A stretch of 32,550 bases of DNA from Microbacteriaceae bacterium PS02332 (GTDB lineage: Bacteria > Actinomycetota > Actinomycetes > Actinomycetales > Microbacteriaceae): positions 1-32,550 of the forward strand of contig JASCOJ010000019.1 of the NCBI GenBank assembly GCA_029959645.1. The letters are read 5' to 3'. Numbering within the stretch: position 1 is the first letter of the stretch; each line of letters opens with the position of its first letter. Of the stretch, positions 4,806-29,179 are shown one piece after another. A model generated the notes under the pieces. That model had not been told where the DNA came from. It worked only from the letters and a program-made list of their open reading frames with translations, and did no database searches. The position numbers and the translations under genes were made by a program.

Positions 4806-4888
4806 GCACCGATGCAACCAGGTACGGCCGTTCCCTGGTCGTCTGGTCGATCACGATCGGCTGCGCGATGACCGGTGTCCGGGCGGCC

Positions 4889-5961: not shown

Positions 5962-6054
5962 ACTTCATCCCGCGCAGCGCATCCGTGCTCAGCGGACCGA
6001 CTGTCGCGGACCTGGAAGCCGGTCGTCTGCCCGCCGTTGTGTCAGGATCAGCGC

Positions 6055-7206: not shown

Positions 7207-8253
7207 TCAGGCCGTCCCGACCCGCCCCGTCGACTCCCGCACGCTGAGGGTCAGCTCGGGCCCCGGGCGCGAGGGGAGTGGCGCGTCCGCCTCGATCTGC
7301 TCGCGCAGCAGGACGGCGGCCCGTTGCCCGAGCTCGACCGTGTCACGGGTGAGGGACGTGATCGCGGGCCGGACGAGCCGGATCATCGCGGAGTCGTCGA
7401 AGGACACGATGGAGACGTCCTGCGGCACCCGGACGCCCATCTCGCTCGCGACGCCGAGCCCCGCGACCGCGAGCACGTCGTTGTCGAACACGATCGCGGT
7501 CGGCCGGCGCGTGCCGGACAGGAGGCGGCGGGTGGCCGCGGCGCCCGCCTCGGCGGAGTAGTCGGTCGGGACGGACTCGGTGCGGTCGTCCGCGTCGGCG
7601 TCGGGGAACGTGCCCGCGAAGGCCCGGACCCGCTCGATCCGCAGCGCGGTGTGCTCGAACTCCGGTGGCCCGGACACGTGCGCGATCCGCCGGTGTCCGA
7701 GTGCCCGGAGGTAGCGCAGTACGGTGTCGGTGGCGTCGGAGTCGTCGATCCAGACGCTCGGCGCGGAGCCGGCCGGGGTGGGGTGGGAGCCGACGACGAC
7801 GGACGGCATCCCGAGTTCGGCGAGCAGCGTGAGGCGGTCGTCGTCGCGGCGGGGGTCGATCACGACGACGCCGTCCACACGATGCCCGCGCCACCAGTCG
7901 CGGTAGGTCTCGAGCTCCTCCTCGGCATCGCGCGCCACGAGCAGCGTCATGCCGATGTGCGTCCCGGTCAGGCCGAGCTGGATGCCGGAGATGAGGTCGC
8001 CGAAGAACGACTCGGTACCGAGTGTCCGAGCCGGCCGGTTCAGCACGAAGCCGATCGTCCCGGCGCGCGCGCCGCCGAGGGCCCGGGCCGCGGTGTGCGG
8101 TCGCCAGTCGAGTTCGCGGGCCGCTTGCCGGACCCGCTCACGTGTCGCGTCGGAGACGCCGGGGCGTCCGTTCAGGGCGAAGGACACGGCGCTGATGGAC
8201 ACGCCGGCACGCGCTGCGATGTCGGCGATCGTCGTCCTGCGTCCTGGAGGCAC
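7207..8253 (-). CDS. LacI-family regulator of the N-glycan cluster
   Basis: A 348-aa transcription factor with an N-terminal LacI helix-turn-helix (residues 7-27, TIADIAARAGVSISAVSFAL), the hinge helix with its operator-inserting leucine (HTAARALGG), and a periplasmic-binding-protein-like effector domain (about 65-340). It is divergent from the sugar ABC/glycosidase cluster starting at 8355 and is its likely repressor, probably released by a mannose-containing oligosaccharide. It starts with GTG at 8253. There is no ribosome-binding site, but TATAGT (8266-8261 on this strand) ends seven bases before it, the spacing expected for a leaderless mRNA. That -10 lies inside the palindrome at 8259-8278, so the protein probably represses itself too. 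The effector is an inference from the neighbours. Confidence 0.88.
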   Translation of the reverse strand: MPPGRRTTIADIAARAGVSISAVSFALNGRPGVSDATRERVRQAARELDWRPHTAARALGGARAGTIGFVLNRPARTLGTESFFGDLISGIQLGLTGTHIGMTLLVARDAEEELETYRDWWRGHRVDGVVVIDPRRDDDRLTLLAELGMPSVVVGSHPTPAGSAPSVWIDDSDATDTVLRYLRALGHRRIAHVSGPPEFEHTALRIERVRAFAGTFPDADADDRTESVPTDYSAEAGAAATRRLLSGTRRPTAIVFDNDVLAVAGLGVASEMGVRVPQDVSIVSFDDSAMIRLVRPAITSLTRDTVELGQRAAVLLREQIEADAPLPSRPGPELTLSVRESTGRVGTA

Positions 8254-8258
8254 GGGCT

Positions 8259-8278
8259 TGACTATAGCGCTTTAGTCA
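8259..8278. promoter_or_regulatory. LacI-type operator 1 over the regulator's own promoter
   Basis: A 20-bp inverted repeat, TGACTATAGC then GCTTTAGTCA, with one mismatched pair and the central CG step typical of LacI-family operators. It contains the -10 of the minus-strand regulator gene (TATAGT, 8266-8261) and overlaps a plus-strand TTGACT (8258-8263) that could be the -35 of the glycan cluster, though I see no good matching -10. Confidence 0.75.
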
Positions 8279-8316
8279 GGCACCGTGGCCGTCACGCAGC
8301 GGTTCACCTACGACGG

Positions 8317-8330
8317 CTGAACCGGTTCAG
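8317..8330. promoter_or_regulatory. LacI-type operator 2 upstream of the sugar-binding gene
   Basis: A perfect 14-bp palindrome, CTGAACCGGTTCAG, with a central CG, lying 24 bases before the ATG of the sugar-binding lipoprotein. Its centre is 55 bp from that of operator 1. The half-sites differ (TGACTAAAGC versus CTGAACC), so either one regulator tolerates both or a second LacI protein acts here. Confidence 0.65.
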
Positions 8331-8354
8331 TAGCTCGACGAAGGAGTCAGCACG

Positions 8355-9653
8355 ATGAGAACCACCCCTCGCACCACGACCGGCCGCGTGGCCGCGATCC
8401 TCGCCGGCGCCGCGGCTGCGGCGCTCGTCCTCACCGGGTGCTCGGCCGGGGGCAGCGCCTCGACCGGTGGCGGGGGCGACGGGAAGGTCACCGGGTCGAT
8501 CACCCTGCAGACCTGGGCGCTCACGCCGACGTACACGGACTACCTCAACGGTGTCGTGAAGGCGTTCGAGGCGAAGTACCCGGGGACGAAGGTCAAGCTC
8601 GTCGACCAGCCGGGCGACGGCTACGCCGACAAGGTGCTCAGTCAGGCGTCGTCGAACTCCCTGCCGGACGTGGTCAACCTGCCGCCGGACATCGCCCTGC
8701 CGCTCGCGAAGCGCGGGTTCCTGCAGGACGTCGCGAAGGACGACACGAAGCTCTCGAGCACCTACGTGAAGGGCGCGCTGGCCGCGTACGACTACAAGGG
8801 CCTCGACGGCACGTACGGCTACCCGTGGTACCTCAACACGGACATCGACTACTGGAACAAGAGCATGTTCGAGCAGTGTGGCCTCGACCCGGCCAGCCCG
8901 CCGAAGACCACCGACGAGCTCTTCAGCCAGGCCGAGACGATGCACACGAAGTGCCCCGACGACTACCTGATGAGCCGGAAGCCGGGCCTGTCCGACTTCT
9001 CGCTCGCCGGCGTCAAGATCATCAACGACCAGGGCACGAAGTTCACCTTCGCGGACTCGTCGAAGGCGGCCGACCTGATCAGCAAGTACGCGAAGGCGTA
9101 CAAGGAGGGCCTCATGCCGTCGTCGGTCCTGAACACCGACTACCTCGGCAACTCGACGCTCTTCACGCAGGGCAAGGTCGCCTGGACCACCGGTGGCGCC
9201 ACCGCGATCAGCGACTTCGAGAAGAACAACCCGTCGCTCAAGGGCAACATCATCGTCTCGCCGGCGCTGGACAACCCACCGCTGTACGTGCAGGGCCTCA
9301 GCGTCTCGTCGAAGAGCAAGCACGTCGCCACGGCCGAGGCGCTCGCCCGCTTCATGACGAACGCGGAGAACCAGGAGGCGTTCGCCCACCTGGTGAACAT
9401 CTTCCCGTCGACCATCTCGTCGCAGTCCGACCCGTTCTTCTCGAAGGACGACGGCACCGTCGAGGCGAAGGCCCGTGTCCTCGCGAACGACGCGCTGAAG
9501 ACCGCGAAGAACCTCAACCCGGTCGAGGCGAACTCGGCGATGACGGACTTCCTCGACCAGCAGATCGCGCTGGCGATGAAGGGCGGCACGACGCCCGAGA
9601 AGGCGCTGCAGACCGCGCAGACCAAGATGAACACCCTGCTCGCCAACGGCTGA
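8355..9653 (+). CDS. Sugar ABC transporter substrate-binding lipoprotein
   Basis: A 432-aa solute-binding protein of the carbohydrate (CUT1-type) ABC family. The signal peptide ends in the lipobox LTGC with Cys29, followed by a Gly/Ser linker, so it is tethered outside the membrane. Typical segments: GSITLQTWALTPTYTDYLNG at the start of lobe 1, KAFEAKYPGTKVKLVD, LPDVVNLPPDIALPLAKRG, and a C-terminal helical end (TTPEKALQTAQTKM). AAGGAG (8341-8346) lies eight bases before the ATG. As first gene of the cluster it would capture the oligosaccharide freed by the secreted GH18 enzyme and pass it to the two permeases. Specificity for Man-rich, GlcNAc-ended glycans is inferred from the neighbouring enzymes. 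Confidence 0.9.
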   Translation: MRTTPRTTTGRVAAILAGAAAAALVLTGCSAGGSASTGGGGDGKVTGSITLQTWALTPTYTDYLNGVVKAFEAKYPGTKVKLVDQPGDGYADKVLSQASSNSLPDVVNLPPDIALPLAKRGFLQDVAKDDTKLSSTYVKGALAAYDYKGLDGTYGYPWYLNTDIDYWNKSMFEQCGLDPASPPKTTDELFSQAETMHTKCPDDYLMSRKPGLSDFSLAGVKIINDQGTKFTFADSSKAADLISKYAKAYKEGLMPSSVLNTDYLGNSTLFTQGKVAWTTGGATAISDFEKNNPSLKGNIIVSPALDNPPLYVQGLSVSSKSKHVATAEALARFMTNAENQEAFAHLVNIFPSTISSQSDPFFSKDDGTVEAKARVLANDALKTAKNLNPVEANSAMTDFLDQQIALAMKGGTTPEKALQTAQTKMNTLLANG

Positions 9654-9689
9654 TCCGGCCCGTCACACGAAGGAAGAGGGAGGATCGTC

Positions 9690-10568
9690 ATGCGTGCGAA
9701 CCGCTGGTTCACGCCCTGGCTGCTGGTGCTGCCCGCACTGGTCTGGCTGCTCGCGTTCAGTCTCTGGCCGTCGATCAACACCGTGCGGCTGTCGTTCACG
9801 AACGCCAGCCCGCTCGGCGGGGTCAGCCGGTGGGTCGGGGTCGCGAACTTCCAGACCCTGCTCGCCGACCCGCAGGTGTGGGAGGCGCTGCTCAACAGCG
9901 TCATCTACATGGCGGTGTGCCTGCCGCTGCTGACGGTCCTCCCGCTCCTCATGGCCGTGCTGGTCCAGCACAAGATGCCCGGCATCGCGTTCTTCCGGAC
10001 GGCCTACTACACGCCGGTGATCGCCAGCGCGGTGGTCGTCGGGCTCATCTGGAACTGGATCCTCGACGACCGCGGCGTCGTCAACGAGATGGCGCAGTCG
10101 CTCGGCATCGTGCAGCACGCCATCCCGTTCCTCACCGACCGGTGGCTCCTCGTGTTCAGCGCGATCAGCCTCACGGTCTGGAAGGGCCTCGGCTACTACA
10201 TGATCATCTTCCTGGCCGCGCTCGGGAACGTCGGCAAGGACCTGCACGAGGCCGCCGCCCTCGACGGCGCCGGGGCGGTGCGCCGGTTCTGGTCGGTGAC
10301 GATGCCGGGCGTCCGGGGCACGATGACGCTCGTCGGCATCCTGGTGTGCGTGAGCGCGCTCCGGGTGTTCAGCGAGCTCTACATCCTCACGAACGGCACG
10401 GGTGGGCCCGGCGGACAGGACAACTCGCTCGTCATGCTCATCCAGCAGTACGCCCGCGGGTTCACCGGCAACCTCGGGTACGCCTCGGCCCTGAGCCTCC
10501 TGCTCTTCGTCGTCACCCTGATCCCGATGCTCGCGCTCGCGCGGATGAACAGCAAGGCGGACCGATGA
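9690..10568 (+). CDS. Sugar ABC transporter permease (MalF-type)
   Basis: A 292-aa inner-membrane permease of the CUT1 family with about six transmembrane helices. The cytoplasmic EAA loop that docks to the ATPase is visible at residues 187-207 (EAAALDGAGAVRRFW, then SVTMPG). The first helix is LLVLPALVWLLAFSLWPSI. A GGGAGG site precedes the ATG by six bases. It is paired with the next gene, overlapping it by four bases, and the two should form a heterodimeric channel. No ATPase gene lies in the cluster; in actinobacteria such transporters commonly share one MsiK-type ATPase encoded elsewhere. Confidence 0.92.
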   Translation: MRANRWFTPWLLVLPALVWLLAFSLWPSINTVRLSFTNASPLGGVSRWVGVANFQTLLADPQVWEALLNSVIYMAVCLPLLTVLPLLMAVLVQHKMPGIAFFRTAYYTPVIASAVVVGLIWNWILDDRGVVNEMAQSLGIVQHAIPFLTDRWLLVFSAISLTVWKGLGYYMIIFLAALGNVGKDLHEAAALDGAGAVRRFWSVTMPGVRGTMTLVGILVCVSALRVFSELYILTNGTGGPGGQDNSLVMLIQQYARGFTGNLGYASALSLLLFVVTLIPMLALARMNSKADR

Positions 10569-11554
10569 GCAACACGGCCAGCACCAGCGAACCGGTCGTC
10601 GGCGGCAACGCCGGTGTCGCCGCACCGACGCCGGACGTGACCGGCGCGACCGGCGGCGGCCGGGCCTCCGGAGCGAAGGGACCGACCGCGCCGGACGGGC
10701 GGAAGCGTCGTCGCCGCGCCGCCTGGGGCGTCATGTCCACCCGCGAGAAGGTGCTCCGCTACGTCCTGCTCGTCGTGGTGCTCTTCATCACGATCGGCCC
10801 GTTCCTCTGGCAGCTGTCCACCTCGCTCAAGGGCACGGGCGAGGACATCTACACCGCGAACCCGTCGTTCATCCCGTCGCAGCCGACGTTCGGCAACTAC
10901 CTCCGGGTCGCCGACGCCATCCCGGTGTTCGGCTACATCGGCAACTCGCTCGTCGTCGCCGCGATCGACGTCGTCGGGAACATCGTGTTCGCGACCCTCG
11001 CCGGGTTCGCCCTGGCCCGGCTGCAGTGGCGCTTCCGCAAGCTCGTGCTCGGTCTGTTCCTCGCGACCCTGGTGCTGCCGGGCGAGGCGACGATCATCAG
11101 CCAGTTCGTCACCATCAAGGACATCGGGCTCGCCGACTCCCTGGTCGGCGTCGCGCTGCCCGGCATGATCGCGGCGCTCAACGTGCTGCTCATGTTCAAC
11201 GCCTTCCGGCAGATCCCCGAGGAGATCGACCAGGCCGCGGTGATGGACGGCGCGAACGCCGTGCAGCGGCTCCGGTACATCGCGTTCCCCGCCGTGCAGG
11301 GCACCATCGCGGTGATCGCGATCTTCTCGTTCATCGGTGCGTGGGACGACTTCCTCTGGCCGCTCATCGTCCTGCAGTCGCCGGACAAGCTCACGTTGAC
11401 CGTGGGCCTGCAGTACCTGCAGGGCACGTTCGCCACCGACCAGCGGATGATCGCGGCCGGCACGATGATCGCGTTCATCCCGATAGCGGTGATCTTCTCC
11501 GTGCTGCAGCGCTTCTTCTTCAAGGGCGTCGAAGAGGGCGGGGTGAAGGGCTGA
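10565..11554 (+). CDS. Sugar ABC transporter permease (MalG-type)
   Basis: A 329-aa CUT1 permease. Helices start at about residue 63 (VLRYVLLVVVLFITIGPFLW); the EAA-type loop is EEIDQAAVMDGANAVQ (219-234); FSFIGAWDDFLWPL is a hallmark of the MalG side. It begins with ATG overlapping the previous stop (ATGA). The first 50 residues are an unusual Gly/Ala/Thr/Pro-rich, probably disordered extension ending in a basic patch (RKRRRRAAW). An internal ATG at residue 57 (MSTREK) would give a conventional protein, but the ATGA overlap favours the long form. The gene's last base is the first base of the GH5 start codon, a tight operon. Confidence 0.92.
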   Translation: MSNTASTSEPVVGGNAGVAAPTPDVTGATGGGRASGAKGPTAPDGRKRRRRAAWGVMSTREKVLRYVLLVVVLFITIGPFLWQLSTSLKGTGEDIYTANPSFIPSQPTFGNYLRVADAIPVFGYIGNSLVVAAIDVVGNIVFATLAGFALARLQWRFRKLVLGLFLATLVLPGEATIISQFVTIKDIGLADSLVGVALPGMIAALNVLLMFNAFRQIPEEIDQAAVMDGANAVQRLRYIAFPAVQGTIAVIAIFSFIGAWDDFLWPLIVLQSPDKLTLTVGLQYLQGTFATDQRMIAAGTMIAFIPIAVIFSVLQRFFFKGVEEGGVKG

Positions 11555-12909
11555 TGCGCTTCGGCGTCAACCACACCCCGTCGAACGGCTGGTTCCACTC
11601 CTGGCTCGACTTCTCGCCGTCCGACACCGCGCGGGACCTCGAGGCGATCGCCGGCCTCGGCGCGGACCACGTGCGGGTCTTCCCGCTCTGGCCGGTCGTG
11701 CAGCCGAACCGGACCCTGATCCGGTCGTCGGCGCTCGAGGACGTCGCCACCGTGGTCGACATCGCCGGGTCGTTCGGTCTCGACGTCACCGTCGACGCGC
11801 TGCAGGGGCACCTGTCGAGCTTCGACTTCCTGCCGTCCTGGCTCGACTCGTGGCACCGCCGCAACATGTTCACCGACCCGGACGTGGTCGGCTCGACCGC
11901 GGACTACGTGCGGGCGCTCGCCGGTGCGGTCGGTGACCGGCCGAACCTGCTCGGCGTCACGGTCGGCAACGAGGTCAACCAGTTCGCGCACGCCCCGCAC
12001 CCGGCGCCGTTCGCGACCACGCCCGAGGAGGGGCACGCGTGGGCGGCGGCGATGGTCGGCGCGGCCCGTGCAGGGCTCGCCGGTGGGGAGGCCCGGCTTC
12101 CCGCCGCCACCCGGCCCACCCCCGCCGTCGGCGAGCGCCCGGCACCGCTCGTGACGCTCGCCCAGTACGACGCGGCCTGGTACGACGACGCGCAGCCGTT
12201 CGGCCCCGACCACGCGGCCGAGCACGGCGACGCGACCGTCACGCACTCGTGGGTGTTCAACGGGTCAGCTCGGCTGCACGGTGCCCTCGGCCCGGGTTCG
12301 GTCCGGCACGGCGAGTACCTGTTGCAGCTCGCGGCCGCGTGGAACACCGGCGCAGACCGGCCGAACTGGTTGCAGGAGGTCGGCGCACCGACCAACGTGG
12401 TGGACGTGGCCGACGCCCCGAGCTTCACCGAGCAGACCATCCGGCACGCCCTCGACGTGCAGGGGCTGTTCGGCATCACGTGGTGGTGCTCCCACGACGT
12501 CTCCCGCTCGCTCGCCGACTTCCCCGAGCTCGAGTACGACCTGGGCCTGCTCACGAACGACGGCCGGGTGAAGCCGACGGGGGAGCGGTTCCGCGAGCTG
12601 GCCCTCGCGTTCGGCGACGGCCGCTACCAGGCGCCGACCCCGCCGTCGACGGCACTCGTGCTCGACGACGTGACGCCCGACGGGGGAGTCCGGCACGGCA
12701 GCCGCGCCGACTCCGCCCCCGGCGGCCGGTTCGCCGCCGCGTGGCTCGCGATCGCCGAACGGGACGGCCGCGGCCCCCAGGTGGTGCTCCGCTCCCGACT
12801 CGGCGACGCGGCACTCCTCGCCGATCGCGGGATCACCACCTGCGTCGACGTGCCGAGCGACACGGCGTCCGCCGCCGTGGCCGTCGCCCACCCCGCCACC
12901 ATGCCCTGA
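11554..12909 (+). CDS. GH5-type beta-mannosidase candidate (GH5_18-like)
   Basis: A 451-aa glycoside hydrolase with no signal peptide, hence cytoplasmic. It opens with MRFGVNHTPSNGWFHSWLDF and contains HLSSFDFLPSWL. The clan GH-A catalytic pair is visible: acid/base Glu140 in GVTVGNEVNQF (Asn-Glu at the end of strand 4) and nucleophile Glu275 in NWLQEVGAP (end of strand 7). The (beta/alpha)8 barrel occupies about residues 1-365; the last ~85 form a small extra domain. The opening and the catalytic context resemble the GH5_18 beta-mannosidases of Bifidobacterium, which cleave Man-beta-1,4-GlcNAc left after N-glycan trimming; that fits GH38, GH92 and Endo H-like neighbours. The subfamily is from memory, not a search. 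Another GH5 or unclassified clan-A beta-glycosidase is the alternative. Start overlaps the permease stop by one base (TGATG). Confidence 0.72.
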   Translation: MRFGVNHTPSNGWFHSWLDFSPSDTARDLEAIAGLGADHVRVFPLWPVVQPNRTLIRSSALEDVATVVDIAGSFGLDVTVDALQGHLSSFDFLPSWLDSWHRRNMFTDPDVVGSTADYVRALAGAVGDRPNLLGVTVGNEVNQFAHAPHPAPFATTPEEGHAWAAAMVGAARAGLAGGEARLPAATRPTPAVGERPAPLVTLAQYDAAWYDDAQPFGPDHAAEHGDATVTHSWVFNGSARLHGALGPGSVRHGEYLLQLAAAWNTGADRPNWLQEVGAPTNVVDVADAPSFTEQTIRHALDVQGLFGITWWCSHDVSRSLADFPELEYDLGLLTNDGRVKPTGERFRELALAFGDGRYQAPTPPSTALVLDDVTPDGGVRHGSRADSAPGGRFAAAWLAIAERDGRGPQVVLRSRLGDAALLADRGITTCVDVPSDTASAAVAVAHPATMP

Positions 12910-12936
12910 GACCCACCGCCGTCCCCCGGAGGACCC

Positions 12937-15900
12937 ATGCACGACGACATCCCGCTCACCATCGGCCGCGCCCGCCGCGTCCTCGACGAGCGCATCCTGC
13001 CCGAGGTGCACGCCACCGCCGTCCCGCTCGACGCCGCCTGGCACGAGCTGCCCGGTGAGCCCATCGCCCCGGCCGAGGGCCTCGCGCTCGCCTTCGAGCC
13101 GTACGAGGTCGGCACGCCGTGGGGCGCCGCCTGGGGGACCACCTGGTTCCGCTTGTCGGGCACCGTCCCCGCCGCGTGGGCCGGCCAGCGGGTCGAGGCG
13201 CTCGTCGACCTCGGCTTCGACAAGAACATGCCGGGCTTCCAGTGCGAGGGTCTCGTCTACCTCGCCGACGGCACCCCGGTGAAGTCGCTCAACCCGCGCA
13301 ACCAGTGGGTGCTCATCACCGAGGAGGCCGTCGGCGGCGAGACCGTCGAGTTCTTCGTCGAGGCCGCCGCCAACCCGGTGCTGCTCGACTACCACCCCTT
13401 CCTCGTCACGCAGGAGGGCGACATCCGCACGTCGTCCCCGAAGCGGCTGTACACGAGCCGGCGGATGGACCTCGCGGTGTTCGCGTCCGAGGTGCACGAG
13501 CTCGCACTCGACATCGACGTCCTGCTCGAACTGCAGGAGGAGCTGCCACAGGGACCCCGCCGGATGCGGATCCTGCAGGCGCTCGACGACGCCCTCGACG
13601 CCCTCGACCTGCAGCACATCCCGGAGACCGCCCCCGACGCCCGTGCGGCGCTCGCCGAGGTGCTCGCGGCCCCGGCCGAGGCATCGGCGCACCGGATCTC
13701 TGCGGTCGGGCATGCCCACATCGACTCCGCGTGGCTCTGGCCGGTCCGCGAGACGATCCGCAAGGTCGCCCGCACGACGTCGAGCATGACCGAGCTCATC
13801 GGCCAGACCGACGACTTCCTCTACGGCATGTCGAGCGCCCAGCAGTACGCCTGGATCAAGGAGCACCGCCCCGAGGTCTACGCGAAGGTCAAGGACGCCG
13901 TGGCCGCCGGCCGGTTCCTGCCCCTCGGCGGGATGTGGGTCGAGTCCGACACGGTGATGCCGACCGGCGAGAGCATCGTCCGGCAGTTCTCGCAGGGCCA
14001 GCGGTTCTTCGAGCGGGAGTTCGGGATCCGGCCGAAGGGCGTCTGGCTGCCGGACAGCTTCGGGTACTCGCCGGCCCTGCCGCAGCTCATGCGTCGGGCG
14101 GGCTTCGCGTGGTTCTTCACGCAGAAGATCTCGTGGAACCAGGTGAACAAGTTCCCGCACCACACCTTCCTCTGGGAGGGCATCGACGGGTCACGGGTCT
14201 TCTCCCACTTCCCGTCGATGGACACGTACAACTCGCGGCTCTCCGGGTCCGAGGTCGCGAAGGCCTCCCGCCAGTTCCGGGAGAACCGGCTCGCCTCGGG
14301 GTCGATCGCGCCGGTCGGCTGGGGGGACGGCGGCGGCGGCACCACCCGCGAGATGACCGGCACGGCAGCACGCCTGGCCGACCTCGAGGGCAGCGCCCGC
14401 GTGACGTGGGAGCACCCGGACGCGTTCTTCGACCGGGCGAAGTCCGAGCTCGAGGACCCGCCCGTGTGGGTCGGGGAGCTCTACCTCGAGCTGCACCGCG
14501 CGACGCTCACGAGCCAGCACCAGACGAAGCAGGGCAACCGCCGGAGCGAGCACCTGCTCGTCGAGGCCGAGCTGTGGTGCGCCACGGCCGCGGCCCGCAC
14601 CGACTTCGCGTACCCGTACGACGAGCTCGACGCGCTCTGGCAGCAGGTGCTCCTGCAGCAGTTCCACGACATCCTGCCGGGCACGTCGATCGCGTGGGTG
14701 CACCGCGAGGCCGTCGAGCGGTACGCGGAGATCGCGACCCGCCTGGAGGCCCTCATCACGTCGGCCCTGTCCGCGCTCGCCGGCGACGGAGACGCGACGG
14801 TCGTCGTGAACCCGGCCCCGAGCCTCCAGGGGGGTGCCCTCGCGCAGAGCGCGGTGCTCACCACCGACGTCGAGGCGACCACCCCGGTCACCCTCGCCGA
14901 GTCGGACGGCGGGTTCGTGCTCACGAACGACCTCGTCCGTGTCGTCGTCGACGGCCGCGGACTGGTCACGAGCGCCGTCGACCTGACCACCGGCCGTGAC
15001 GCGATCGCCCCGGGACAGGTCGCCAACCTGCTGCAGCTCCATCAGGACTTCCCGAACATGTGGGACGCGTGGGACGTCGACCGGTACTACCGGAACCGGG
15101 TCGAGGACCTCGTCGACGTGACCGAGCTGCGCGGCGCGGTCGACACCGACGGCACCGCCCGTGTCACGGTGTCGCGCGCGTTCAGCGAGTCGACCGTGAC
15201 GCAGGAGATCACCCTCGCCCCGGGCGCCCGCACGCTCGAGTTCGCCCAGGTGACGGACTGGCACGAGACCGAGAAGTTCCTCAAGGTGGCCTTCCCGCTC
15301 GACGTCCGCGCCGAGCACACCATCGCGGAGACGCAGTTCGGTGCGCAGAAGCGGGTGACGCACACCAACACCTCGTGGGAGGCCGCGAAGTTCGAGACGT
15401 CCATGCACCGCTACGTGCTCGTCGAGGAGCCGGGCTTCGGCGTCGCGCTCGTCAACGACTCGATCCACGGGTACGACGTCACGCGGGACTCGGTCGGCGG
15501 CCACGTCACGACGACGCTCCGGCTCTCGCTGCTCCGCGCACCCCGGTTCCCCGACCCGGAGACCGACCAGGGCACCCAGACGCACCGGTACGGCCTGGTG
15601 ATCGGGACGGACATCGTGGGTGCCACCGCCGCCGGCACCGTGATGAACACCGCAGCGCGGACGGTGACGGGTGCGCACGGGTTCGCCGCGCTCGTGCAGG
15701 CGTCCGGCGACGTCGTGGTCTCAGCCGTGAAGCTCGCCGACGACCGGTCCGGCGACCTGGTCGTCCGCGTGTACGAGCCCGCGGGCCGTCGCGGTACCGG
15801 CGGCCTGGCGGTCGACGGGCCCTTCGGCCAGCCGACCGAGGTCACGCTGCTCGAGGAGGCCGACCCCGCGCTGCCCGACATCACCGCGGTGTCCGACGGG

Positions 15901-15972
15901 GGTGCGGCCTTCCCGGTCGACGCCTTCGAGGTCCGCACGTTCCGCTTCCCCCGCAGCGGGCAGGCGGACTGA
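12937..15972 (+). CDS. GH38 alpha-mannosidase (MAN2C1-like, cytosolic type)
   Basis: A 1011-aa zinc-dependent retaining alpha-mannosidase without signal peptide. An N-terminal beta domain (about 1-250) precedes the catalytic barrel. The metal site is GHAHIDSAWLWP (258-269, His261 and Asp263), the nucleophile is Asp373 in LPDSFGYSPALPQ, and a further conserved metal-site histidine is His577 in QFHDILPGTSI; a large C-terminal beta region follows (about 630-1011). This motif set matches the MAN2C1/Ams1 branch that trims free oligomannosides in the cytosol, not the Golgi class. It would remove alpha-1,3/1,6-linked (and possibly 1,2-linked) mannose from imported N-glycans, leaving Man-beta-GlcNAc for the GH5-type enzyme. 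GGAGG lies five bases before the ATG; 27 bases separate it from the GH5 gene. Length is normal for the family and all key residues are present. Confidence 0.93.
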   Translation: MHDDIPLTIGRARRVLDERILPEVHATAVPLDAAWHELPGEPIAPAEGLALAFEPYEVGTPWGAAWGTTWFRLSGTVPAAWAGQRVEALVDLGFDKNMPGFQCEGLVYLADGTPVKSLNPRNQWVLITEEAVGGETVEFFVEAAANPVLLDYHPFLVTQEGDIRTSSPKRLYTSRRMDLAVFASEVHELALDIDVLLELQEELPQGPRRMRILQALDDALDALDLQHIPETAPDARAALAEVLAAPAEASAHRISAVGHAHIDSAWLWPVRETIRKVARTTSSMTELIGQTDDFLYGMSSAQQYAWIKEHRPEVYAKVKDAVAAGRFLPLGGMWVESDTVMPTGESIVRQFSQGQRFFEREFGIRPKGVWLPDSFGYSPALPQLMRRAGFAWFFTQKISWNQVNKFPHHTFLWEGIDGSRVFSHFPSMDTYNSRLSGSEVAKASRQFRENRLASGSIAPVGWGDGGGGTTREMTGTAARLADLEGSARVTWEHPDAFFDRAKSELEDPPVWVGELYLELHRATLTSQHQTKQGNRRSEHLLVEAELWCATAAARTDFAYPYDELDALWQQVLLQQFHDILPGTSIAWVHREAVERYAEIATRLEALITSALSALAGDGDATVVVNPAPSLQGGALAQSAVLTTDVEATTPVTLAESDGGFVLTNDLVRVVVDGRGLVTSAVDLTTGRDAIAPGQVANLLQLHQDFPNMWDAWDVDRYYRNRVEDLVDVTELRGAVDTDGTARVTVSRAFSESTVTQEITLAPGARTLEFAQVTDWHETEKFLKVAFPLDVRAEHTIAETQFGAQKRVTHTNTSWEAAKFETSMHRYVLVEEPGFGVALVNDSIHGYDVTRDSVGGHVTTTLRLSLLRAPRFPDPETDQGTQTHRYGLVIGTDIVGATAAGTVMNTAARTVTGAHGFAALVQASGDVVVSAVKLADDRSGDLVVRVYEPAGRRGTGGLAVDGPFGQPTEVTLLEEADPALPDITAVSDGGAAFPVDAFEVRTFRFPRSGQAD

Positions 15973-15977
15973 GGCCG

Positions 15978-15996
15978 CCCGGGCCGCATGCCCGGG
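15978..15996 (+). terminator. GC hairpin after the GH38 gene
   Basis: CCCGGGC, five-base loop, GCCCGGG, starting five bases after the GH38 stop. A 7-bp all-GC stem without a U-tract: possibly an attenuating or processing hairpin that lowers expression of the downstream GH18-GH92 pair. It immediately precedes the suspect C/G tract, so the local sequence should be treated with care. Confidence 0.4.
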
Positions 15997-16003
15997 TCAC
16001 AGA

Positions 16004-16090
16004 CCCCCGCGCCCCCCGCCCCCGCGGGGGGGCGGGGCGGGCCCCCCCCCCCCCGGGCGGGGGCGGGGGGGGCCCGGGGGCCCGGGCCCA
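16004..16090. other. Internal low-complexity C/G tract between GH38 and GH18
   Basis: About 87 bases of almost pure C and G runs, including one of fourteen C, unlike any other internal noncoding DNA here and very like the two window ends. The remaining gap to the GH18 start (16091-16181) looks normal but holds no clear promoter. Either a sequencing/assembly artefact or a real GC-slippery region; the genes on both sides belong to the same pathway, so true contiguity is likely. Confidence 0.7.
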
Positions 16091-16181
16091 CGGCCGATCG
16101 GTCGTGGACCGCGGCGGCACGGTCGTCGCCGCGCACCGTGGTGGCAGTCGCCGTCACGGACACCACTCGAAGGAGAGTGTC

Positions 16182-17156
16182 ATGCAGAAGTCCATGAAGA
16201 TCGGGATCGTGGCGGCGCTCGTCGCCGTGGTGGCGGCGCCGATGGTGCCCGCCGCCGCGTCGGCAGCACCGGGCGGACCGGCCGCGGCGTCGTCCGGCCA
16301 GGGCCACGGGCACGGCCGGGGGCCGGGGCACGGGCACGGAGCGCCGGGGCACGGAGTCCCGACGAAGTCCGGGCCGACGAGCATCGCCTACGTCGAGGTG
16401 AACAACGACGAGCTCCGGAACGTCGGCCGGTACACGCTCGAGAGCGGCGCGAACGCGTTCGACGTGGCGATCATCTTCGCCGCGAACATCAACAACGACA
16501 ACGGCCGGGCCGTCCTGTACGCCAACGAGAACGTGCAGCGCACGCTCGACCAGGCCGCCACGCAGATCCGCCCGCTGCAGGCCCAGGGCATCAAGGTCAC
16601 GCTGTCGGTGCTCGGCAACCACCAGGGCACCGGCCTGGCGAACTTCACCTCGAAGGCCGCCGCGCGGGACTTCGCTGCGCAGGTCTCGGCGACCGTGGCG
16701 AAGTACGGGTTGGACGGCGTCGACCTCGACGACGAGTACTCGGACTACGGCGCGAACGGCACCCCGCAGCCGAACGACCAGTCGATCGGCTGGCTCGTCT
16801 CGGCGCTCCGCGCGGACATGCCCGGCAAGATCATCTCGTTCTACGACATCGGCCCGTCGTCGACGTCGCTGCAGCACGAGAAGCCGTCGATCGGGCAGAA
16901 GCTCGACTACGCCTGGAACCCGTACTACGGCACCTACACGGCCCCGACGATCCCGGGCCTGCCGAAGTCGAAGGTCTCGGCCGCCGCGGTCGACATCCAG
17001 AACACCCCGGCGGACCTCGCCGTCACGCTCGCGCAGCGCACGAAGGCGGACGGGTACGGCGTCTTCATGACGTACAACCTGCCGGACGGCGACGTCAGCC
17101 CGTACGTGTCCGGGTTCACGAAGGTGCTGTACGGCCAGAGCGCCGTCTACAAGTGA
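16182..17156 (+). CDS. Secreted GH18 endo-beta-N-acetylglucosaminidase (Endo H-like)
   Basis: A 324-aa enzyme that should cut the GlcNAc-beta-1,4-GlcNAc core of high-mannose N-glycans. It has a Sec signal peptide (MQKSMKIGIVAALVAVV.., likely cleaved after AAASA, about residue 28), so it works outside the cell. A striking Gly/His-rich linker (about 39-58, HGHGRGPGHGHG) leads to the barrel starting at TSIAYVEVNNDELRNVGRY (66-84). The GH18 signature is LDGVDLDDE (177-185) with catalytic Glu185 and Asp183, in the Endo H form DGVDxDDEYxxYG; NAFDVAIIFAANIN and GIKVTLSVLGNHQGTGLANF also match Endo H rather than chitinases. Length is typical of single-domain Endo H types. AGGAG (16171-16175) precedes the ATG. 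It is the only secreted enzyme in the cluster. Confidence 0.92.
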   Translation: MQKSMKIGIVAALVAVVAAPMVPAAASAAPGGPAAASSGQGHGHGRGPGHGHGAPGHGVPTKSGPTSIAYVEVNNDELRNVGRYTLESGANAFDVAIIFAANINNDNGRAVLYANENVQRTLDQAATQIRPLQAQGIKVTLSVLGNHQGTGLANFTSKAAARDFAAQVSATVAKYGLDGVDLDDEYSDYGANGTPQPNDQSIGWLVSALRADMPGKIISFYDIGPSSTSLQHEKPSIGQKLDYAWNPYYGTYTAPTIPGLPKSKVSAAAVDIQNTPADLAVTLAQRTKADGYGVFMTYNLPDGDVSPYVSGFTKVLYGQSAVYK

Positions 17157-17170
17157 GGACCGATTGATCG

Positions 17171-20100
17171 ATGAGTGACGCACGCCGTGGCGGCCCGACG
17201 ACCGCGGTCGCAGCCCGGAACGGGGTCGGGTTCGTCTCGCAGGAGGCGACCCCGATCGCACAGACCGACGCGCGGGGGACCGTGCAGGTCCTCCCCGAGC
17301 ACGCCGGACGGGAGGTCGGGCCCACCGACGTCCTGACCTGGGTCTGGTTCCCGGAGCGGTCGCTGCCCGAGGGACAGACCGAACCGACGGTCCCGGACCT
17401 CGACGGGTTCTGGGCCGCCACGGCGTTCGCACTCGACGTCGTCTTCACCGACGGCACCCGGCTGAGCGCGTGCGGTGCCCGCGACCAGTACGGCGACGCC
17501 GTCACCCCCGAGGGGCAGGACGACGCCCGCAAGCAGTGGGTCGACCAGTGGAACCGACGGACCGTCGACCTGTCGGCGCATGCCGGCAAGGTGGTGGACC
17601 GCCTGGAGGCCCGGCTCGGCCGCGCGGACCGGCCCGCGCCCGCAGCGGGGTCCGGCCGCGCCGTACGCGGCTGGCTCGACGACGTGCGGATCGAGCCGGC
17701 CGGTCCCGGGACCGGTGCCGTGCCTCCCGGCCGTCGCCCGCTCGACTTCGTCCGCACCACCCGCGGCACGCACTCGTCGGGCACGTTCTCGCGGGGGAAC
17801 ACCGCCCCGCTCGTCGGGCTCCCGCACGGCGGCGTGTTCGGCCTCCCGATGACGAGGGCGTCGGACAACCGGTGGCCGTACGCCTACCAGGAGCACAACC
17901 GGCCGAGCGACAACCGGCCGACGATCCAGGCGTTCGCCACCAGCCACCTGCCGTCGCCCTGGATGGCCGACCGCGGGGTGTTCCAGGTGATGCCGTCCCC
18001 GCTCGCCTCGCCTCACCTGGACCGGACCGCCCGCGCGCTCGGGTTCGACCACATCGACGAGCTCGACGGCCCGCACCGCTACCGGGTCGCCCTCGACGAG
18101 GGCGTCACCGCCGAGATGACCGCGGGGGAGTTCGCCCTCGGCTTCCGGTTCACCGGCGTCCGCAGCGTCGTGCTCGACCACCACGGCGTCCTCCGCTCGT
18201 GCACGGTCCGGCTCGAGGACGGCACGGCGGTGATCGACGCCCTGCTCGACGACCGTGCCGAGACCCCGCCGCACCACGTCCACGTGCGGATCGCGAACGC
18301 GGTCGCGGACCACACGGCGTTCGTCGACGGCGAGCTCCGAGGCTGGATCGAGGTGACCGGGGACACCGACGTGCTGCTCGGCATCTCGACCGTGTCGGCC
18401 GCGGACGCCGTCGCGGACCTCGACGCCGCGGGCGACTTCGACACGATGCGCGAGCACGCGGAGGAACGCTGGATCGCGGAACTCGACGTGGTCCAGGTCG
18501 AGGGCGCCACCGAGGACCAGCTCGTCTCGCTGTACTCCGGGCTGTACCGCGCGTTCCTCTACCCGACCCGGGCCGGGGAAACGGCGCTGACGGGAAGCCC
18601 GAAGCACCGATCGCCCTACGGTTCCGTGCTCAGCGAGCCGGTCCGCGACGAGCCCGGGCCCGAGGTCGTCGACGGGCCGCTCACCACGACGAACGGGTTC
18701 TGGGACACCTACCGGACCGCCTGGCCGCTCCTCGCGCTCCTCACCCCGGACACCGCGGCCGACCTCGCCGAGGGCGTCGTCGGGCACTTCACCGACGGCG
18801 GTTGGACCCCGCGGTGGAGTGCGCCGGGCGCCGAGGACGTGATGACCGGCACCACGAGCGACACCGTCTTCGCCGACCTCGTGGCGAAGGGCGTCGACGC
18901 GTTCGACGTCGCGCAGGCGTACCGGTCGGCGCTGCGGAACGCGACCGTCCCGGCGCGGGACCGGCGGGTCGGGCGGAAGGGGAGCCTCCCGGGCCTGTTC
19001 CGCGGGTACGTCGACACGGCGACCGGCGAGGGGATGTCCTGGACCCTCGACGCGGCCGTCAACGACTGGGGCGTCGCCGTGCTGGCAGGCGCGATGGCGG
19101 ACCGTGCCGCGGCCGACGGTGACCCGGCCGGCGAGGCCCGGTACCGCGCCGAGCACGAGTGGTTCGCGCGTCGGTCCCTGCAGTACCGGAACGTCTTCGA
19201 CCGCGAGCGCGGGTTCTTCGTCGGCCGGACGCCGGACGGCGGCTGGCGCGGTACCGAACCGGACGATGCCTTCGACCCGGACGAGTGGGGGAGCGACTAC
19301 ACCGAGACGAACGCCTGGGGCACGATGTTCACCGCGCCGCACGACGGGGCCGGGGTCGTCGACCTGCACGGTGGACCCGCCGGGTTCGACGAGGCGTTCG
19401 CGCGCTTCTGGGCGCGCCGGGAGACCGGCGGCACCGACCGCTCCGGCTCGTACGGGTTCGCGATCCACGAGATGACCGAGGCCCGCGACATCCGGATGGG
19501 CATGCTCGGGTTGTCGAACCAGCCGGCGCACCACATCCCCTTCTTCCCGATGTCCACCGGCCGGCACGACGACGCGCACCGCATCGTCCGCGAGTGCCTC
19601 GAGCGGCTGTTCGTCGGGTCCGACATCGGCCAGGGGTACCCCGGTGACGAGGACAACGGCGAGATGAGCGGCTGGTACGTCTTCGCGACCATCGGGCTGT
19701 ACCCGCTGGCGCCGTCGACCGGGACCTACGTGATCGTGCCGCCGTCGGTCCGCCGGTCGGTGCTGCACCGGGAGGGAGGCCGGTCCACCGTCATCGAGAC
19801 CACCGGCAGCGGGGCGTTCATCGCCGCGGTCACCGTCGACGGAGCGCCGTGGGTGTCGATCAGCATCCCGCACGCCGTCGTCAGAGGCGCGTCGCACATC
19901 GTCGTCGCGCTGTCCGAGACGCCGACGGGGTGGGCGTCGGACACGCGGCCGGCGTCAGCCTCCGCCGTCCACGGGTACCGGGACACCCCGGACGACGTGC
20001 TGCCGGTCGGGGCGTCGCCGCTGACCGACAACACCGGGTCGACGCAGGTGGCGCTCGCCGCGGGGGAGTCGGTCGTGGTGCCGGTCACGGTGGCGGCGGC

Positions 20101-20344
20101 CTCGCTCGTCACCGTGACGGCCGCCGTCGCCGGCCGCTCGTCCTGGCGGATCACCCTGCGGGACGCCGAGGAACGCCTGGTGCACGAGCTCGACGGTCGC
20201 GACGAGGAGTTCACGTGGCCCGGGCAGACCCGCGTGTTCCCGTTCGCTGGCGGGGTCGACGGCGGGACGCTCACCTTCTCCGCGGTGGCGCCCGTCGTCC
20301 TGACGCAGCTGCAGCTCATCGCGGCCGACGAAGGAGCGCGCTGA
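17171..20344 (+). CDS. GH92 alpha-mannosidase, probably alpha-1,2-specific
   Basis: A 1057-aa calcium-dependent inverting alpha-mannosidase. After a beta-rich N-terminal region and the GH92 beta-sandwich come catalytic-domain landmarks: GLYRAFLYPTR (457-467), GFWDTYRTAWPLL (509-521), YTETNAWGTMF with Glu712 (expected general acid), AIHEM with His766-Glu767, SNQPAHHIPFF (782-792) and GDEDNGEMSGWY with Asp826/Asp828 (expected general base pair). The adjacent His-Glu corresponds by spacing to the pair described in the alpha-1,2-specific enzyme BT3990. An extra beta domain of about 150 residues follows. There is no signal peptide (starts MSDARRGGP), so unlike many GH92 enzymes it is probably cytoplasmic and acts on imported glycans. 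It starts 14 bases after GH18, with GAGGA overlapping that gene's stop. Confidence 0.92.
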   Translation: MSDARRGGPTTAVAARNGVGFVSQEATPIAQTDARGTVQVLPEHAGREVGPTDVLTWVWFPERSLPEGQTEPTVPDLDGFWAATAFALDVVFTDGTRLSACGARDQYGDAVTPEGQDDARKQWVDQWNRRTVDLSAHAGKVVDRLEARLGRADRPAPAAGSGRAVRGWLDDVRIEPAGPGTGAVPPGRRPLDFVRTTRGTHSSGTFSRGNTAPLVGLPHGGVFGLPMTRASDNRWPYAYQEHNRPSDNRPTIQAFATSHLPSPWMADRGVFQVMPSPLASPHLDRTARALGFDHIDELDGPHRYRVALDEGVTAEMTAGEFALGFRFTGVRSVVLDHHGVLRSCTVRLEDGTAVIDALLDDRAETPPHHVHVRIANAVADHTAFVDGELRGWIEVTGDTDVLLGISTVSAADAVADLDAAGDFDTMREHAEERWIAELDVVQVEGATEDQLVSLYSGLYRAFLYPTRAGETALTGSPKHRSPYGSVLSEPVRDEPGPEVVDGPLTTTNGFWDTYRTAWPLLALLTPDTAADLAEGVVGHFTDGGWTPRWSAPGAEDVMTGTTSDTVFADLVAKGVDAFDVAQAYRSALRNATVPARDRRVGRKGSLPGLFRGYVDTATGEGMSWTLDAAVNDWGVAVLAGAMADRAAADGDPAGEARYRAEHEWFARRSLQYRNVFDRERGFFVGRTPDGGWRGTEPDDAFDPDEWGSDYTETNAWGTMFTAPHDGAGVVDLHGGPAGFDEAFARFWARRETGGTDRSGSYGFAIHEMTEARDIRMGMLGLSNQPAHHIPFFPMSTGRHDDAHRIVRECLERLFVGSDIGQGYPGDEDNGEMSGWYVFATIGLYPLAPSTGTYVIVPPSVRRSVLHREGGRSTVIETTGSGAFIAAVTVDGAPWVSISIPHAVVRGASHIVVALSETPTGWASDTRPASASAVHGYRDTPDDVLPVGASPLTDNTGSTQVALAAGESVVVPVTVAAASLVTVTAAVAGRSSWRITLRDAEERLVHELDGRDEEFTWPGQTRVFPFAGGVDGGTLTFSAVAPVVLTQLQLIAADEGAR

Positions 20345-20412: not shown

Positions 20413-21273
20413 ATGCTCGACCACATCACCCTCGACGGCGGCACGATCGCCGTCGACGTCACCGGGACCGGACCCCTCGTCGTCCTCGCCCACGGCATGG
20501 GCGACAGCCGTCACTCGTACCGGTTCCTCGTGCCGGAACTCGTCGCCGCCGGGTACCGCGTCGCGAACGTCGACCTGCGCGGCTGCGGCGACTCGAGCAC
20601 CGGATGGGCCGGCTACTCCCGCACCGACATCGCCGGGGACCTCGTCGCCGTCATCCGGCACCTCGGCGGCCCGGCCGTCGTCGTCGGCCAGTCCATCAGC
20701 GGCGGCGCGGCCACCATCGCCGCCGCGGACGCCCCCGGACTCGTCGCCGGCCTCGTGGAACTCGCGCCCTTCACCCGGGCCCAGTCGTTCGACCTCGGCG
20801 GGTTCCTCCGCAACCGGAACCGCCACCGCTCCGGCACCGTGCAACTCGCGAAGGTCATGACCGCCGGCAGCCTGCCCGGGTGGCTCGCGTACCTCGACAT
20901 CGCCGTCCCGACCAAGCCGTCCGACTGGGCGGGAGAACGCCGACGCATCGAGGACTCGCTCCGGCAGCCCGAGCGCATGGCCGTCCTCCGGGCGATGACG
21001 AAGACCTCCCCGGCCGACGCCGGCGCCCGGCTGGCCGACGTCCGGTGCCCGGTCCTCGTCGTCGAGGGCGGTGCCGACCCGGACTGGGCCGACCCCGCCG
21101 CCGAGGGTCGCCGTGTCGTCGGGGACCTGCCCAGCGGCCTCGGCGAGCTCGCCGTCATCGACGGCGCCGGGCACTACCCGCACACCGAGACGCCGGCCGA
21201 GGTGCTGGCGCTGCTGCTCCCGTTCCTCACCCGGGTGTGTGCGCCGAGTGCCGTGGCGGACGACCGTGCCTAG
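20413..21273 (+). CDS. Alpha/beta-hydrolase
   Basis: A 286-aa alpha/beta-hydrolase fold enzyme. The oxyanion-hole segment is AHGMGDS (26-32), the nucleophile elbow is VGQSISGG with Ser94, a plausible acid lies in VEGGADPDWAD, and the catalytic histidine is in GAGHYPHTETP. It could be an esterase, lactonase or similar; the natural substrate is not evident. AGGAGG five bases before ATG 20413 fixes the start; an in-frame ATG at 20383 would place the operator inside the gene and is rejected. It is co-transcribed with, and overlapped by, a TetR gene, a pairing often seen when a regulator senses the compound its partner degrades. Its own promoter separates it from the glycan cluster. Confidence 0.88.
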   Translation: MLDHITLDGGTIAVDVTGTGPLVVLAHGMGDSRHSYRFLVPELVAAGYRVANVDLRGCGDSSTGWAGYSRTDIAGDLVAVIRHLGGPAVVVGQSISGGAATIAAADAPGLVAGLVELAPFTRAQSFDLGGFLRNRNRHRSGTVQLAKVMTAGSLPGWLAYLDIAVPTKPSDWAGERRRIEDSLRQPERMAVLRAMTKTSPADAGARLADVRCPVLVVEGGADPDWADPAAEGRRVVGDLPSGLGELAVIDGAGHYPHTETPAEVLALLLPFLTRVCAPSAVADDRA

Positions 21274-26489: not shown

Positions 26490-26541
26490 CGTTGGTTCCT
26501 TTGTGCTGGTGGTGGTGTGGGGGAGGAGGAGGAGAGCGGGG

Positions 26542-27513: not shown

Positions 27514-27624
27514 GCGGGTGCTTTCTGGGAGGTACTGCGCTGTACACGGGGGAGGGGCGGCGGGGGCGCCGTGGGTGGGGCCGCGGGGTGCGGTGGGGTG
27601 CGCTGCGGTGTCGGCGTGCCGCGC

Positions 27625-29178: not shown

Positions 29179-29179
29179 G

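What the first reader, a model, noticed from the sequence alone, without database searches (positions are those of the whole stretch)
8259..20344. Self-contained high-mannose N-glycan harvesting and degradation locus
Seen: one plus-strand cluster encoding a sugar-binding lipoprotein, two permeases, a GH5-type enzyme, GH38, a secreted Endo H-like GH18 and GH92, divergent from a LacI regulator. Known: Endo H-type GH18 releases high-mannose glycans; GH92 and GH38 remove alpha-mannose; GH5_18 splits Man-beta-1,4-GlcNAc in Bifidobacterium. Inferred: the cell cuts glycans outside, imports the oligosaccharide and takes it apart in the cytoplasm in the order GH92, GH38, GH5. Comparable loci are known in Bifidobacterium, Streptococcus pneumoniae and Bacteroides; I do not know of a described one in Microbacteriaceae. 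Plant or fungal glycoproteins would be plausible targets.
Basis: partly seen in the sequence, partly recalled or inferred. Interest (0 to 1): 0.8.

Follow-up and report, generated by a model that had tools for sequence, protein, structure and literature searches.

The report
Curtobacterium high-mannose glycan utilisation operon
A plant-associated bacterium appears to carry one gene cluster for clipping mannose-rich sugar trees off foreign glycoproteins, importing them and eating them inside the cell; such clusters are known from gut, mouth and skin bacteria, but this version is common in its genus and I found no description of it there.

Summary
The cluster is real: a divergent LacI gene, then a binding lipoprotein, two permeases, GH5_18, GH38, Endo H and GH92. 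The GH18 is Endo H (390.8 bits, curated cut-off 300, catalytic motif intact), not a chitinase. The GH5-type enzyme is closest to solved GH5_18 proteins. GH92 carries the +1-subsite triad of alpha-1,2-mannosidases. Of the soluble proteins only Endo H and the lipoprotein have a signal-like N-terminus. The genus is Curtobacterium: 56 of 67 genomes have Endo H, and all 56 also have GH5_18 and GH92. One correction: the locus is not self-contained. No importer ATPase lies in it; the one MalK-type match is elsewhere. In 45 of 56 genomes no GH92 lies within 12 kb of Endo H. I add two operator-like palindromes, conserved in the genus, and a structured spacer before Endo H in many congeners. A new variant of a known kind, of moderate interest.

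The parts
7207..8253 (-). LacI-family regulator, divergent
   Evidence: Pfam LacI 55 bits, Peripla_BP_3 106.6 bits, over cut-off; present with the set in 20 of 21 named Curtobacterium loci
8259..8278 (.). O1: operator-like near-palindrome TGACTATAGCGCTTTAGTCA, overlapping a -35-like TTGACT
   Evidence: The 20-mer 8258-8277 occurs only here in the 3.52 Mb assembly up to 3 mismatches, apart from its own reverse reading; 19-mer within 1 mismatch in 36 of 36 distinct Curtobacterium LacI-SBP gaps
8317..8330 (.). O2: perfect palindrome CTGAACCGGTTCAG
   Evidence: Core 12-mer once exactly in the assembly, 21 further places with 1 mismatch; exact in 26, within 1 mismatch in 28 of 36 distinct Curtobacterium gaps
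8355..9653 (+). Sugar-binding lipoprotein of an ABC importer (lipobox LVLTGCS by eye)
   Evidence: SBP_bac_8 124.5, SBP_bac_1 116.1 bits; hydrophobic N-terminus
9690..10568 (+). ABC sugar permease 1
   Evidence: BPD_transp_1 43.3 bits
10565..11554 (+). ABC sugar permease 2
   Evidence: BPD_transp_1 60.9 bits
11554..12909 (+). GH5_18-like enzyme, predicted exo-beta-1,4-mannosidase splitting Man-beta-1,4-GlcNAc; no signal-like N-terminus
   Evidence: phmmer: ScGH5_18 7lr7 3.7e-127 over residues 2-434, BlGH5_18 7lr1 9.4e-104, exo-beta-1,4-mannosidase 6gvb 9.2e-95 in two stretches; no Pfam or NCBIfam hit at 0.001
12937..15972 (+). GH38 alpha-mannosidase, no signal-like N-terminus
   Evidence: Glyco_hydro_38N 292.3, 38C 171, Alpha-mann_mid 101.2 bits; PDB 7ufr 2.5e-238; the only GH38N match in the assembly
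15973..16181 (+). G+C-rich spacer; in many congeners a strong stem-loop here, then a 5-bp hairpin around the Endo H ribosome-binding site; the window has the small hairpin only
16182..17156 (+). Endo H (GH18 endo-beta-N-acetylglucosaminidase), predicted secreted
   Evidence: NF045482 390.8 bits, cut-off 300; Endo H 1edt 2.7e-98 with DGVDLDDE aligned to DGVDFDDE; signal-like N-terminus
17171..20344 (+). GH92, predicted alpha-1,2-mannosidase, no signal-like N-terminus
   Evidence: PF07971 347.8 bits; TIGR01180 321.6, cut-off 249.55; NnGH92 7nsn 5.8e-190 with W264, H766-E767, E712, D826 and D828 aligned

Best explanation
A LacI-controlled operon of a Curtobacterium for feeding on high-mannose N-glycans. 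Secreted Endo H cuts the chitobiose core of glycoproteins outside the cell. The lipoprotein and two permeases, probably powered by the shared MalK-type ATPase encoded elsewhere, import the freed ManxGlcNAc. In the cytoplasm GH92 removes alpha-1,2 mannoses, GH38 the remaining alpha-1,3/1,6 mannoses, and GH5_18 splits the last Man-beta-1,4-GlcNAc. Shown here: gene content, family identity, diagnostic residues, N-termini, conservation of the operon and of two operator-like sites. Inferred: secretion, import of the intact glycan, order of cutting, LacI binding, inducer and natural substrate.
For: Endo H equivalog over its cut-off with intact motif. GH5 matches solved GH5_18 proteins almost full length, and in two stretches 6gvb, the Cutibacterium acnes enzyme whose exo-beta-1,4-mannosidase activity was confirmed (PMC6160142, passages). 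GH92 +1-subsite triad and catalytic residues present. GH38 near full-length match to 7ufr. Signal-like N-termini on Endo H and the SBP, not on GH5, GH38 or GH92. Endo H in 56 of 67 genus genomes, all 56 with GH5_18 and GH92; GH5 and Endo H within 12 kb in 52 of 56. GH92 co-occurs even where it was not found nearby. A review says that in Bifidobacterium longum the glycan is not trimmed before release (PMC10154615, passage).
Against: No activity, transport or expression data. SBP ligand untested: its nearest solved relative gives only 85.5 bits; NgtS of Streptococcus pneumoniae (5SUO, 5SWA, 5SWB) is not among the 37 listed matches; the structure model was poor. GH92 also occurs in 6 of 11 congeners without Endo H, so it is not dedicated to Endo H products. 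The consensus scan found no sigma-70-like promoter. In 19 loci with distant GH92, O2 with up to 1 mismatch was absent from the whole stretch and O1 fragments from about 330 bases upstream of GH92, so those GH92 genes seem outside the regulon. One plasmid locus with a related GH38 (Arthrobacter, L253) has none of the other parts within 12 kb.
Confidence: 0.85

Rival explanations
1. GH92 acts outside the cell without a classical signal, trimming the glycan; the importer takes only a small core such as Man5GlcNAc.
For: The same was proposed for signal-less SpGH92 of Streptococcus pneumoniae (PMC5215778, passages).
Against: That argument rested on EndoD not cutting glycans that carry alpha-1,2 mannose. 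Endo H cuts full high-mannose glycans (recalled), so no trimming is needed first. The best 11-residue hydropathy near the N-terminus is 1.09 for this GH92 and 0.66-2.00 in 19 unlinked relatives, against 2.43 for the SBP and 3.15 for Endo H.
Confidence: 0.12
2. The true diet is fungal mannoprotein or yeast mannan rather than plant high-mannose glycoprotein.
For: The assembly has a second GH92 in a 2005-aa open frame with an F5/8 type C domain. Multi-domain NnGH92 acts on yeast mannan (PMC10167667, passages). Endo H also cuts yeast N-glycans (recalled).
Against: The ~2000-aa form is in 7 of 67 genus genomes and Endo H in 56, so the operon does not depend on it. No test here separates plant from fungal glycoprotein.
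Confidence: 0.3
3. The GH18 is a chitinase and the cluster serves chitin or beta-mannan breakdown.
For: Pfam gives only Glyco_hydro_18 (35.3 bits); Curtobacterium sp. GD1 has a secreted GH18 chitinase (PMC8565777, passages).
Against: NCBIfam Endo H 390.8 bits against ChiD 24.4; PDB entries named Endo H at 2.7e-98 to 6e-96, chitinases no better than 7.5e-9; two alpha-mannosidases would be idle.
Confidence: 0.02

Closest known systems
Bifidobacterium longum high-mannose N-glycan operon (review PMC10154615, passages; the primary paper PMC10367113 was not held)
   Same: Release without prior trimming, cytoplasmic GH38; GH5_18 proteins named BlGH5_18 and BlMan5B are among the nearest solved relatives (organism recalled)
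   Different: Three GH38 and a GH125 in one operon there; endoglycosidase of GH85 type (recalled). Here one GH38, an Endo H-type GH18 and a GH92
Cutibacterium acnes N-glycan locus 1 (PMC6160142, passages)
   Same: GH38 next to GH5_18, sugar ABC transporter genes, a GH18 candidate endoglycosidase, a regulator
   Different: There a GH20 is present, the GH18 resembles EndoT and has no signal, an ATP-binding protein gene is in the locus, and no GH92 is named in the passages seen
Streptococcus pneumoniae CPL, EndoD and NgtS-P1-P2 (PMC5215778, passages)
   Same: GH92, GH38, an endoglycosidase and an SBP-permease importer for ManxGlcNAc
   Different: EndoD (GH85) needs GH92 trimming first; parts lie in several loci; GH125 is used
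Streptantibioticus cattleyicolor pSCAT cluster (L251) and Streptomyces sp. BHT-5-2 plasmid p1 (L252)
   Same: LacI, SBP, two permeases, GH5_18 and GH38 homologues within about 16 kb, 40-66% identity
   Different: No Endo H or GH92 homologue above 60 bits in the 27 kb examined; pSCAT has a second, multidomain GH38
GH92 enzymes NnGH92 and Microbacterium sp. M-90 aman2 (both named in PMC10167667, passages) and a GH92 gene of Subtercola PAMC28395 (PMC10303725, passages)
   Same: NnGH92 is the closest solved GH92; the other two are from the same family, Microbacteriaceae, and the Subtercola paper already speaks of high-mannose N-glycans
   Different: Single enzymes; no operon with Endo H, importer and GH5_18 is described in the passages seen

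Membership tests
Endo H (NCBIfam NF045482, GH18) | Score above curated cut-off | tested here: met
   390.8 bits, cut-off 300
Endo H (NCBIfam NF045482, GH18) | Catalytic DGxDxDDE motif | tested here: met
   DGVDLDDE at residues 178-185, aligned with 1edt
Endo H (NCBIfam NF045482, GH18) | Secreted | tested here: inconclusive
   Strong hydrophobic N-terminus by a simple script, AxA-like site by eye; no signal-peptide predictor was available
Endo H (NCBIfam NF045482, GH18) | Cuts the chitobiose core of high-mannose glycans | not testable with these tools
   Needs an enzyme assay
GH5_18 exo-beta-1,4-mannosidase | Similarity along the protein to characterised members | tested here: met
   7lr7 3.7e-127 over residues 2-434; 6gvb 9.2e-95 in two stretches
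GH5_18 exo-beta-1,4-mannosidase | Catalytic glutamates | tested here: met
   E140 of VGNE aligns with the residue that is E in 7lr7 and A in 7lr8; the second, E275 in LQEVG, is assigned by recall
GH5_18 exo-beta-1,4-mannosidase | Activity on Man-beta-1,4-GlcNAc | not testable with these tools
   Needs an enzyme assay
GH92 alpha-1,2-mannosidase | Family score above cut-off | tested here: met
   PF07971 347.8 against 24.6; TIGR01180 321.6 against 249.55
GH92 alpha-1,2-mannosidase | Acid Glu, base Asp pair and +1 triad Trp/His-Glu | tested here: met
   E712, D826/D828, W264, H766-E767 opposite NnGH92 E944, D1056/D1058, W477, H996-E997
GH38 alpha-mannosidase | GH38 domains present over cut-off | tested here: met
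   38N, mid, 38C and C2 domains
N-glycan utilisation locus | Endoglycosidase, importer, alpha-mannosidases and beta-mannosidase together | tested here: met
   All within 8355-20344
N-glycan utilisation locus | Own importer ATPase and sugar kinases (needed for 'self-contained') | tested here: not met
   None among the cluster genes scanned; ribokinase and ATPase on the right belong to a ribose-type operon; one OB_MalK match, on C314. Mannose and GlcNAc kinases were not searched for elsewhere
N-glycan utilisation locus | Induced by the glycan | not testable with these tools
   Needs transcript data

The most novel reading that the evidence does not exclude
Most Curtobacterium species live partly by shaving whole high-mannose glycans from plant or fungal glycoproteins and importing them uncut, up to Man9GlcNAc, for an all-cytoplasmic GH92-GH38-GH5_18 pathway. 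A dedicated LacI switch with two private operators controls it, and a locus-specific structured RNA spacer, present in many of the species, tunes secreted Endo H separately from the cytoplasmic enzymes.
Probability: 0.3. Interest if true: 0.6.

Novelty: new variant of a known kind. Interest (0 to 1): 0.42.

Why it matters
It extends N-glycan foraging, mostly studied in gut, mouth and skin bacteria, to a plant-associated genus, and makes it testable with a single operon. Its arrangement, Endo H first and GH92 predicted inside, contrasts with the order proposed for the pneumococcus. The two operator-like sites offer a way to find the natural inducer. The enzymes could also be useful glycan tools.

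Tried and rejected
Chitinase reading of the GH18: rejected. Other genes under the same operators: the exact O2 core and the O1 20-mer up to 3 mismatches occur only here; 21 other one-mismatch O2-like places were not followed. I expected distant GH92 genes to carry the operators; in 19 loci they did not. Structure model of the SBP: mean pLDDT 59, too poor for a fold search, so none was run. For the spacer, 28 of the 29 stretches listed were aligned (L101 left out by me); MAFFT shifted the stem by one column in three rows, so I did not score covariation on that alignment. One search picks the longest stem in 230 bases, part of which can lie in the GH38 gene (so in L118), and its shuffles keep only base composition, so it is not an unbiased test. 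A first count of distinct operator regions (45) held some genomes twice; it was redone. Rfam finds only the two tRNAs in the window. Terminator-like sites: 6 found, 2.1 expected, none in the spacer.

Literature: ten searches, of which I saw the listings (in several only the first 10 to 20 of more), showed no description of such a locus in Curtobacterium or Microbacteriaceae. Only CC0, CC BY and CC BY-SA papers of PubMed Central are held, so this is weak evidence of absence. PMC8565777 counts GH18, GH38 and GH92 genes in Curtobacterium without linking them, in the passages seen.
Full report
WHAT IS THERE. The window is one contig (C110) of a 3.52 Mb, 339-contig assembly. The plus-strand cluster 8355-20344 encodes a sugar-binding lipoprotein, two permeases, a GH5-type enzyme, GH38, Endo H and GH92; a LacI gene runs the other way at 7207-8253. 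The flanks look unrelated: a response regulator, an RhtA-like exporter and an ABC exporter on the left; an alpha/beta hydrolase, a TetR gene and a ribose-type operon on the right.

ORGANISM. The genus is Curtobacterium. The nearest named Endo H is 92% identical, from Curtobacterium sp. MCJR17_055; records very near the window may be left out of that search. The species was not determined.

ENZYMES. Endo H scores 390.8 bits on the curated Endo H model (cut-off 300) and 24.4 on chitinase ChiD. It matches solved Endo H at 2.7e-98 with the DGVDLDDE motif aligned. The GH5-type enzyme has no Pfam or NCBIfam hit but matches ScGH5_18, BlGH5_18 and BlMan5B along most of its length, and 6gvb in two stretches; 6gvb is the Cutibacterium acnes enzyme with confirmed exo-beta-1,4-mannosidase activity (PMC6160142, passages). 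GH38 matches 7ufr at 2.5e-238. GH92 matches NnGH92 at 5.8e-190. In that alignment W264, H766-E767, E712 and D826/D828 stand where NnGH92 has W477, H996-E997, E944 and D1056/D1058, residues that two papers tie to alpha-1,2 specificity and catalysis (positions in this protein).

LOCATION. A hydropathy script finds a signal-like stretch at the N-terminus of the SBP and Endo H and none in GH5, GH38 or GH92. No signal-peptide predictor was available. Release outside and dismantling inside are therefore predictions.

NOT SELF-CONTAINED. The importer lacks an ATPase gene in the cluster. A MalK-type OB domain was found once in the assembly, on C314, in a frame that reads as an ABC ATPase of that type. 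I infer that it is shared. Mannose and GlcNAc catabolic genes were not searched for.

DISTRIBUTION. In a draw of 398 genomes of the family, 13 have Endo H above cut-off (26 at any score): 9 in this genus, window included, and 4 in others. In all 67 genomes held for the genus, Endo H occurs in 56 (55 above cut-off; G404 only in pieces), a GH5_18 match in 58 (G405 and G436 have only a 50-55% identical relative), GH92 in 62. All 56 Endo H genomes have GH5_18 and GH92. GH5 and Endo H lie within 12 kb in 52 of 56; in G295 they are about 0.84 Mb apart, in G417, G433 and G454 on different contigs. A GH92 match lies within 12 kb of Endo H on the same contig in 11 of 56; in two more (G295, G433) GH92 is near GH5. 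Some assemblies are fragmented, so 11 is a lower bound. Six of the 11 genomes without Endo H still have GH92. The genomes are related, so the counts are not independent. In G327, G398, G399, G417, G425, G432 and G453 GH5 is reported in two or three pieces that share an open frame of one length; in G404 and G451 the pieces have different open frames. I did not decide which genes are broken.

BEYOND THE GENUS. Of 80 Endo H loci from named genomes (the best 80 of 342, itself from a capped list), 20 of 21 Curtobacterium loci carry the whole LacI-to-Endo H set; 2 of the 21 also show GH92. Leifsonia aquatica (L189) has all but GH92, and Frigoribacterium (L190) has permeases, GH5, GH38, GH92 and Endo H in the stretch held. 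None of the other 57, mostly Streptomyces, has a GH5, GH38 or GH92 homologue above 130 bits in the DNA held, which is up to 10 kb each side and less in several. Two Streptomycetaceae replicons have LacI, the importer, GH5_18 and GH38 but no Endo H or GH92 homologue in 27 kb; an Arthrobacter plasmid has GH38 alone. Only three of the 210 plasmid records with a match were looked at. So the importer-GH5-GH38 module may be wider than its union with Endo H (inference).

GH92 HISTORY. A tree of 36 GH92 proteins (11 linked, 19 of the 43 unlinked ones, 2 beside LacI, 4 from other genera) puts the 11 linked ones on one side of a branch at 100/100. That fits one change of position within the genus. Direction is not settled, because GH92 is also beside Endo H in the four loci from other genera.

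REGULATION. Two palindromes lie between LacI and the SBP. O1 (TGACTATAGCGCTTTAGTCA) overlaps a -35-like TTGACT; a 20-mer covering it occurs only here up to 3 mismatches, apart from its own reverse reading. The core of O2, TGAACCGGTTCA, occurs once exactly, with 21 further one-mismatch places. In 36 distinct Curtobacterium gaps O1 is within 1 mismatch in 36; O2 is exact in 26 and within 1 mismatch in 28 (within 2 in 36, which is weak for a 12-mer). Mean column conservation is 0.98 in O1 and 0.82 around O2, against 0.65 between them. Seven of the 57 loci given had no LacI-SBP pair. Of the four gaps from other genera, L159 (Frigoribacterium) has O1 exactly and L189 (Leifsonia) with 1 mismatch, while L032 and L033 differ by 5. 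LacI binding is inferred. The consensus scan found no promoter.

SPACER BEFORE ENDO H. Of 75 loci given, 69 were read and 6 missed; these give 46 distinct upstream regions. In 31 of 46 there is a perfect stem of 13 or more pairs within 230 bases, against 3 of 138 composition-only shuffles; in at least L118 the stem seems to lie in the GH38 gene. The commonest form is a 13-14 bp stem with a TTCGGGT-type loop; stems differ in sequence between species while the loop is nearly fixed. Its 17-base core, with up to 1 mismatch, occurs once in each of three genomes searched, at this place, so there it is not a general repeat. A 5-bp hairpin frames the ribosome-binding site in 38 of 46, with CACTC/GAGTG changed to CATTC/GAATG in some; one has 4 pairs and 7 have only 1 or 2, so it is not universal. 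The window has the small hairpin, but where relatives have the large stem it has C and G runs. A role in setting the Endo H level is a guess.

VERDICT. It is a new variant of a known kind of system, common in its genus, with no description found in the papers searched.

Noticed in passing
15973-16181: 209-base spacer of 85% G+C with long C and G runs, where close relatives have a 124-125-base spacer with a 14-bp stem; possibly poor assembly or a local change.
   Followed up: partly
L001 = G000:C155:3477-8006: Second GH92, in a 2005-aa open frame with an F5/8 type C domain; ~2000-aa open frames in 7 of 67 genus genomes.
   Followed up: partly
20413-21844: Alpha/beta hydrolase and TetR-family genes follow GH92; both also follow it in 8 of the 10 other loci with linked GH92 (L148-L155, not L156 or L157). 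Relation to the operon unknown.
   Followed up: partly
24571-30238: Minus-strand ribose-type operon: LacI, ABC ATPase, permease, binding protein, ribokinase-like kinase.
   Followed up: no
4796-6543: Two open frames of 236 and 344 codons without Pfam or NCBIfam hit; may not be genes.
   Followed up: no
G404 and G451 (handles): GH5_18 pieces in different open frames, and in G404 Endo H also in pieces, suggesting decay or sequencing error in some congeners.
   Followed up: no
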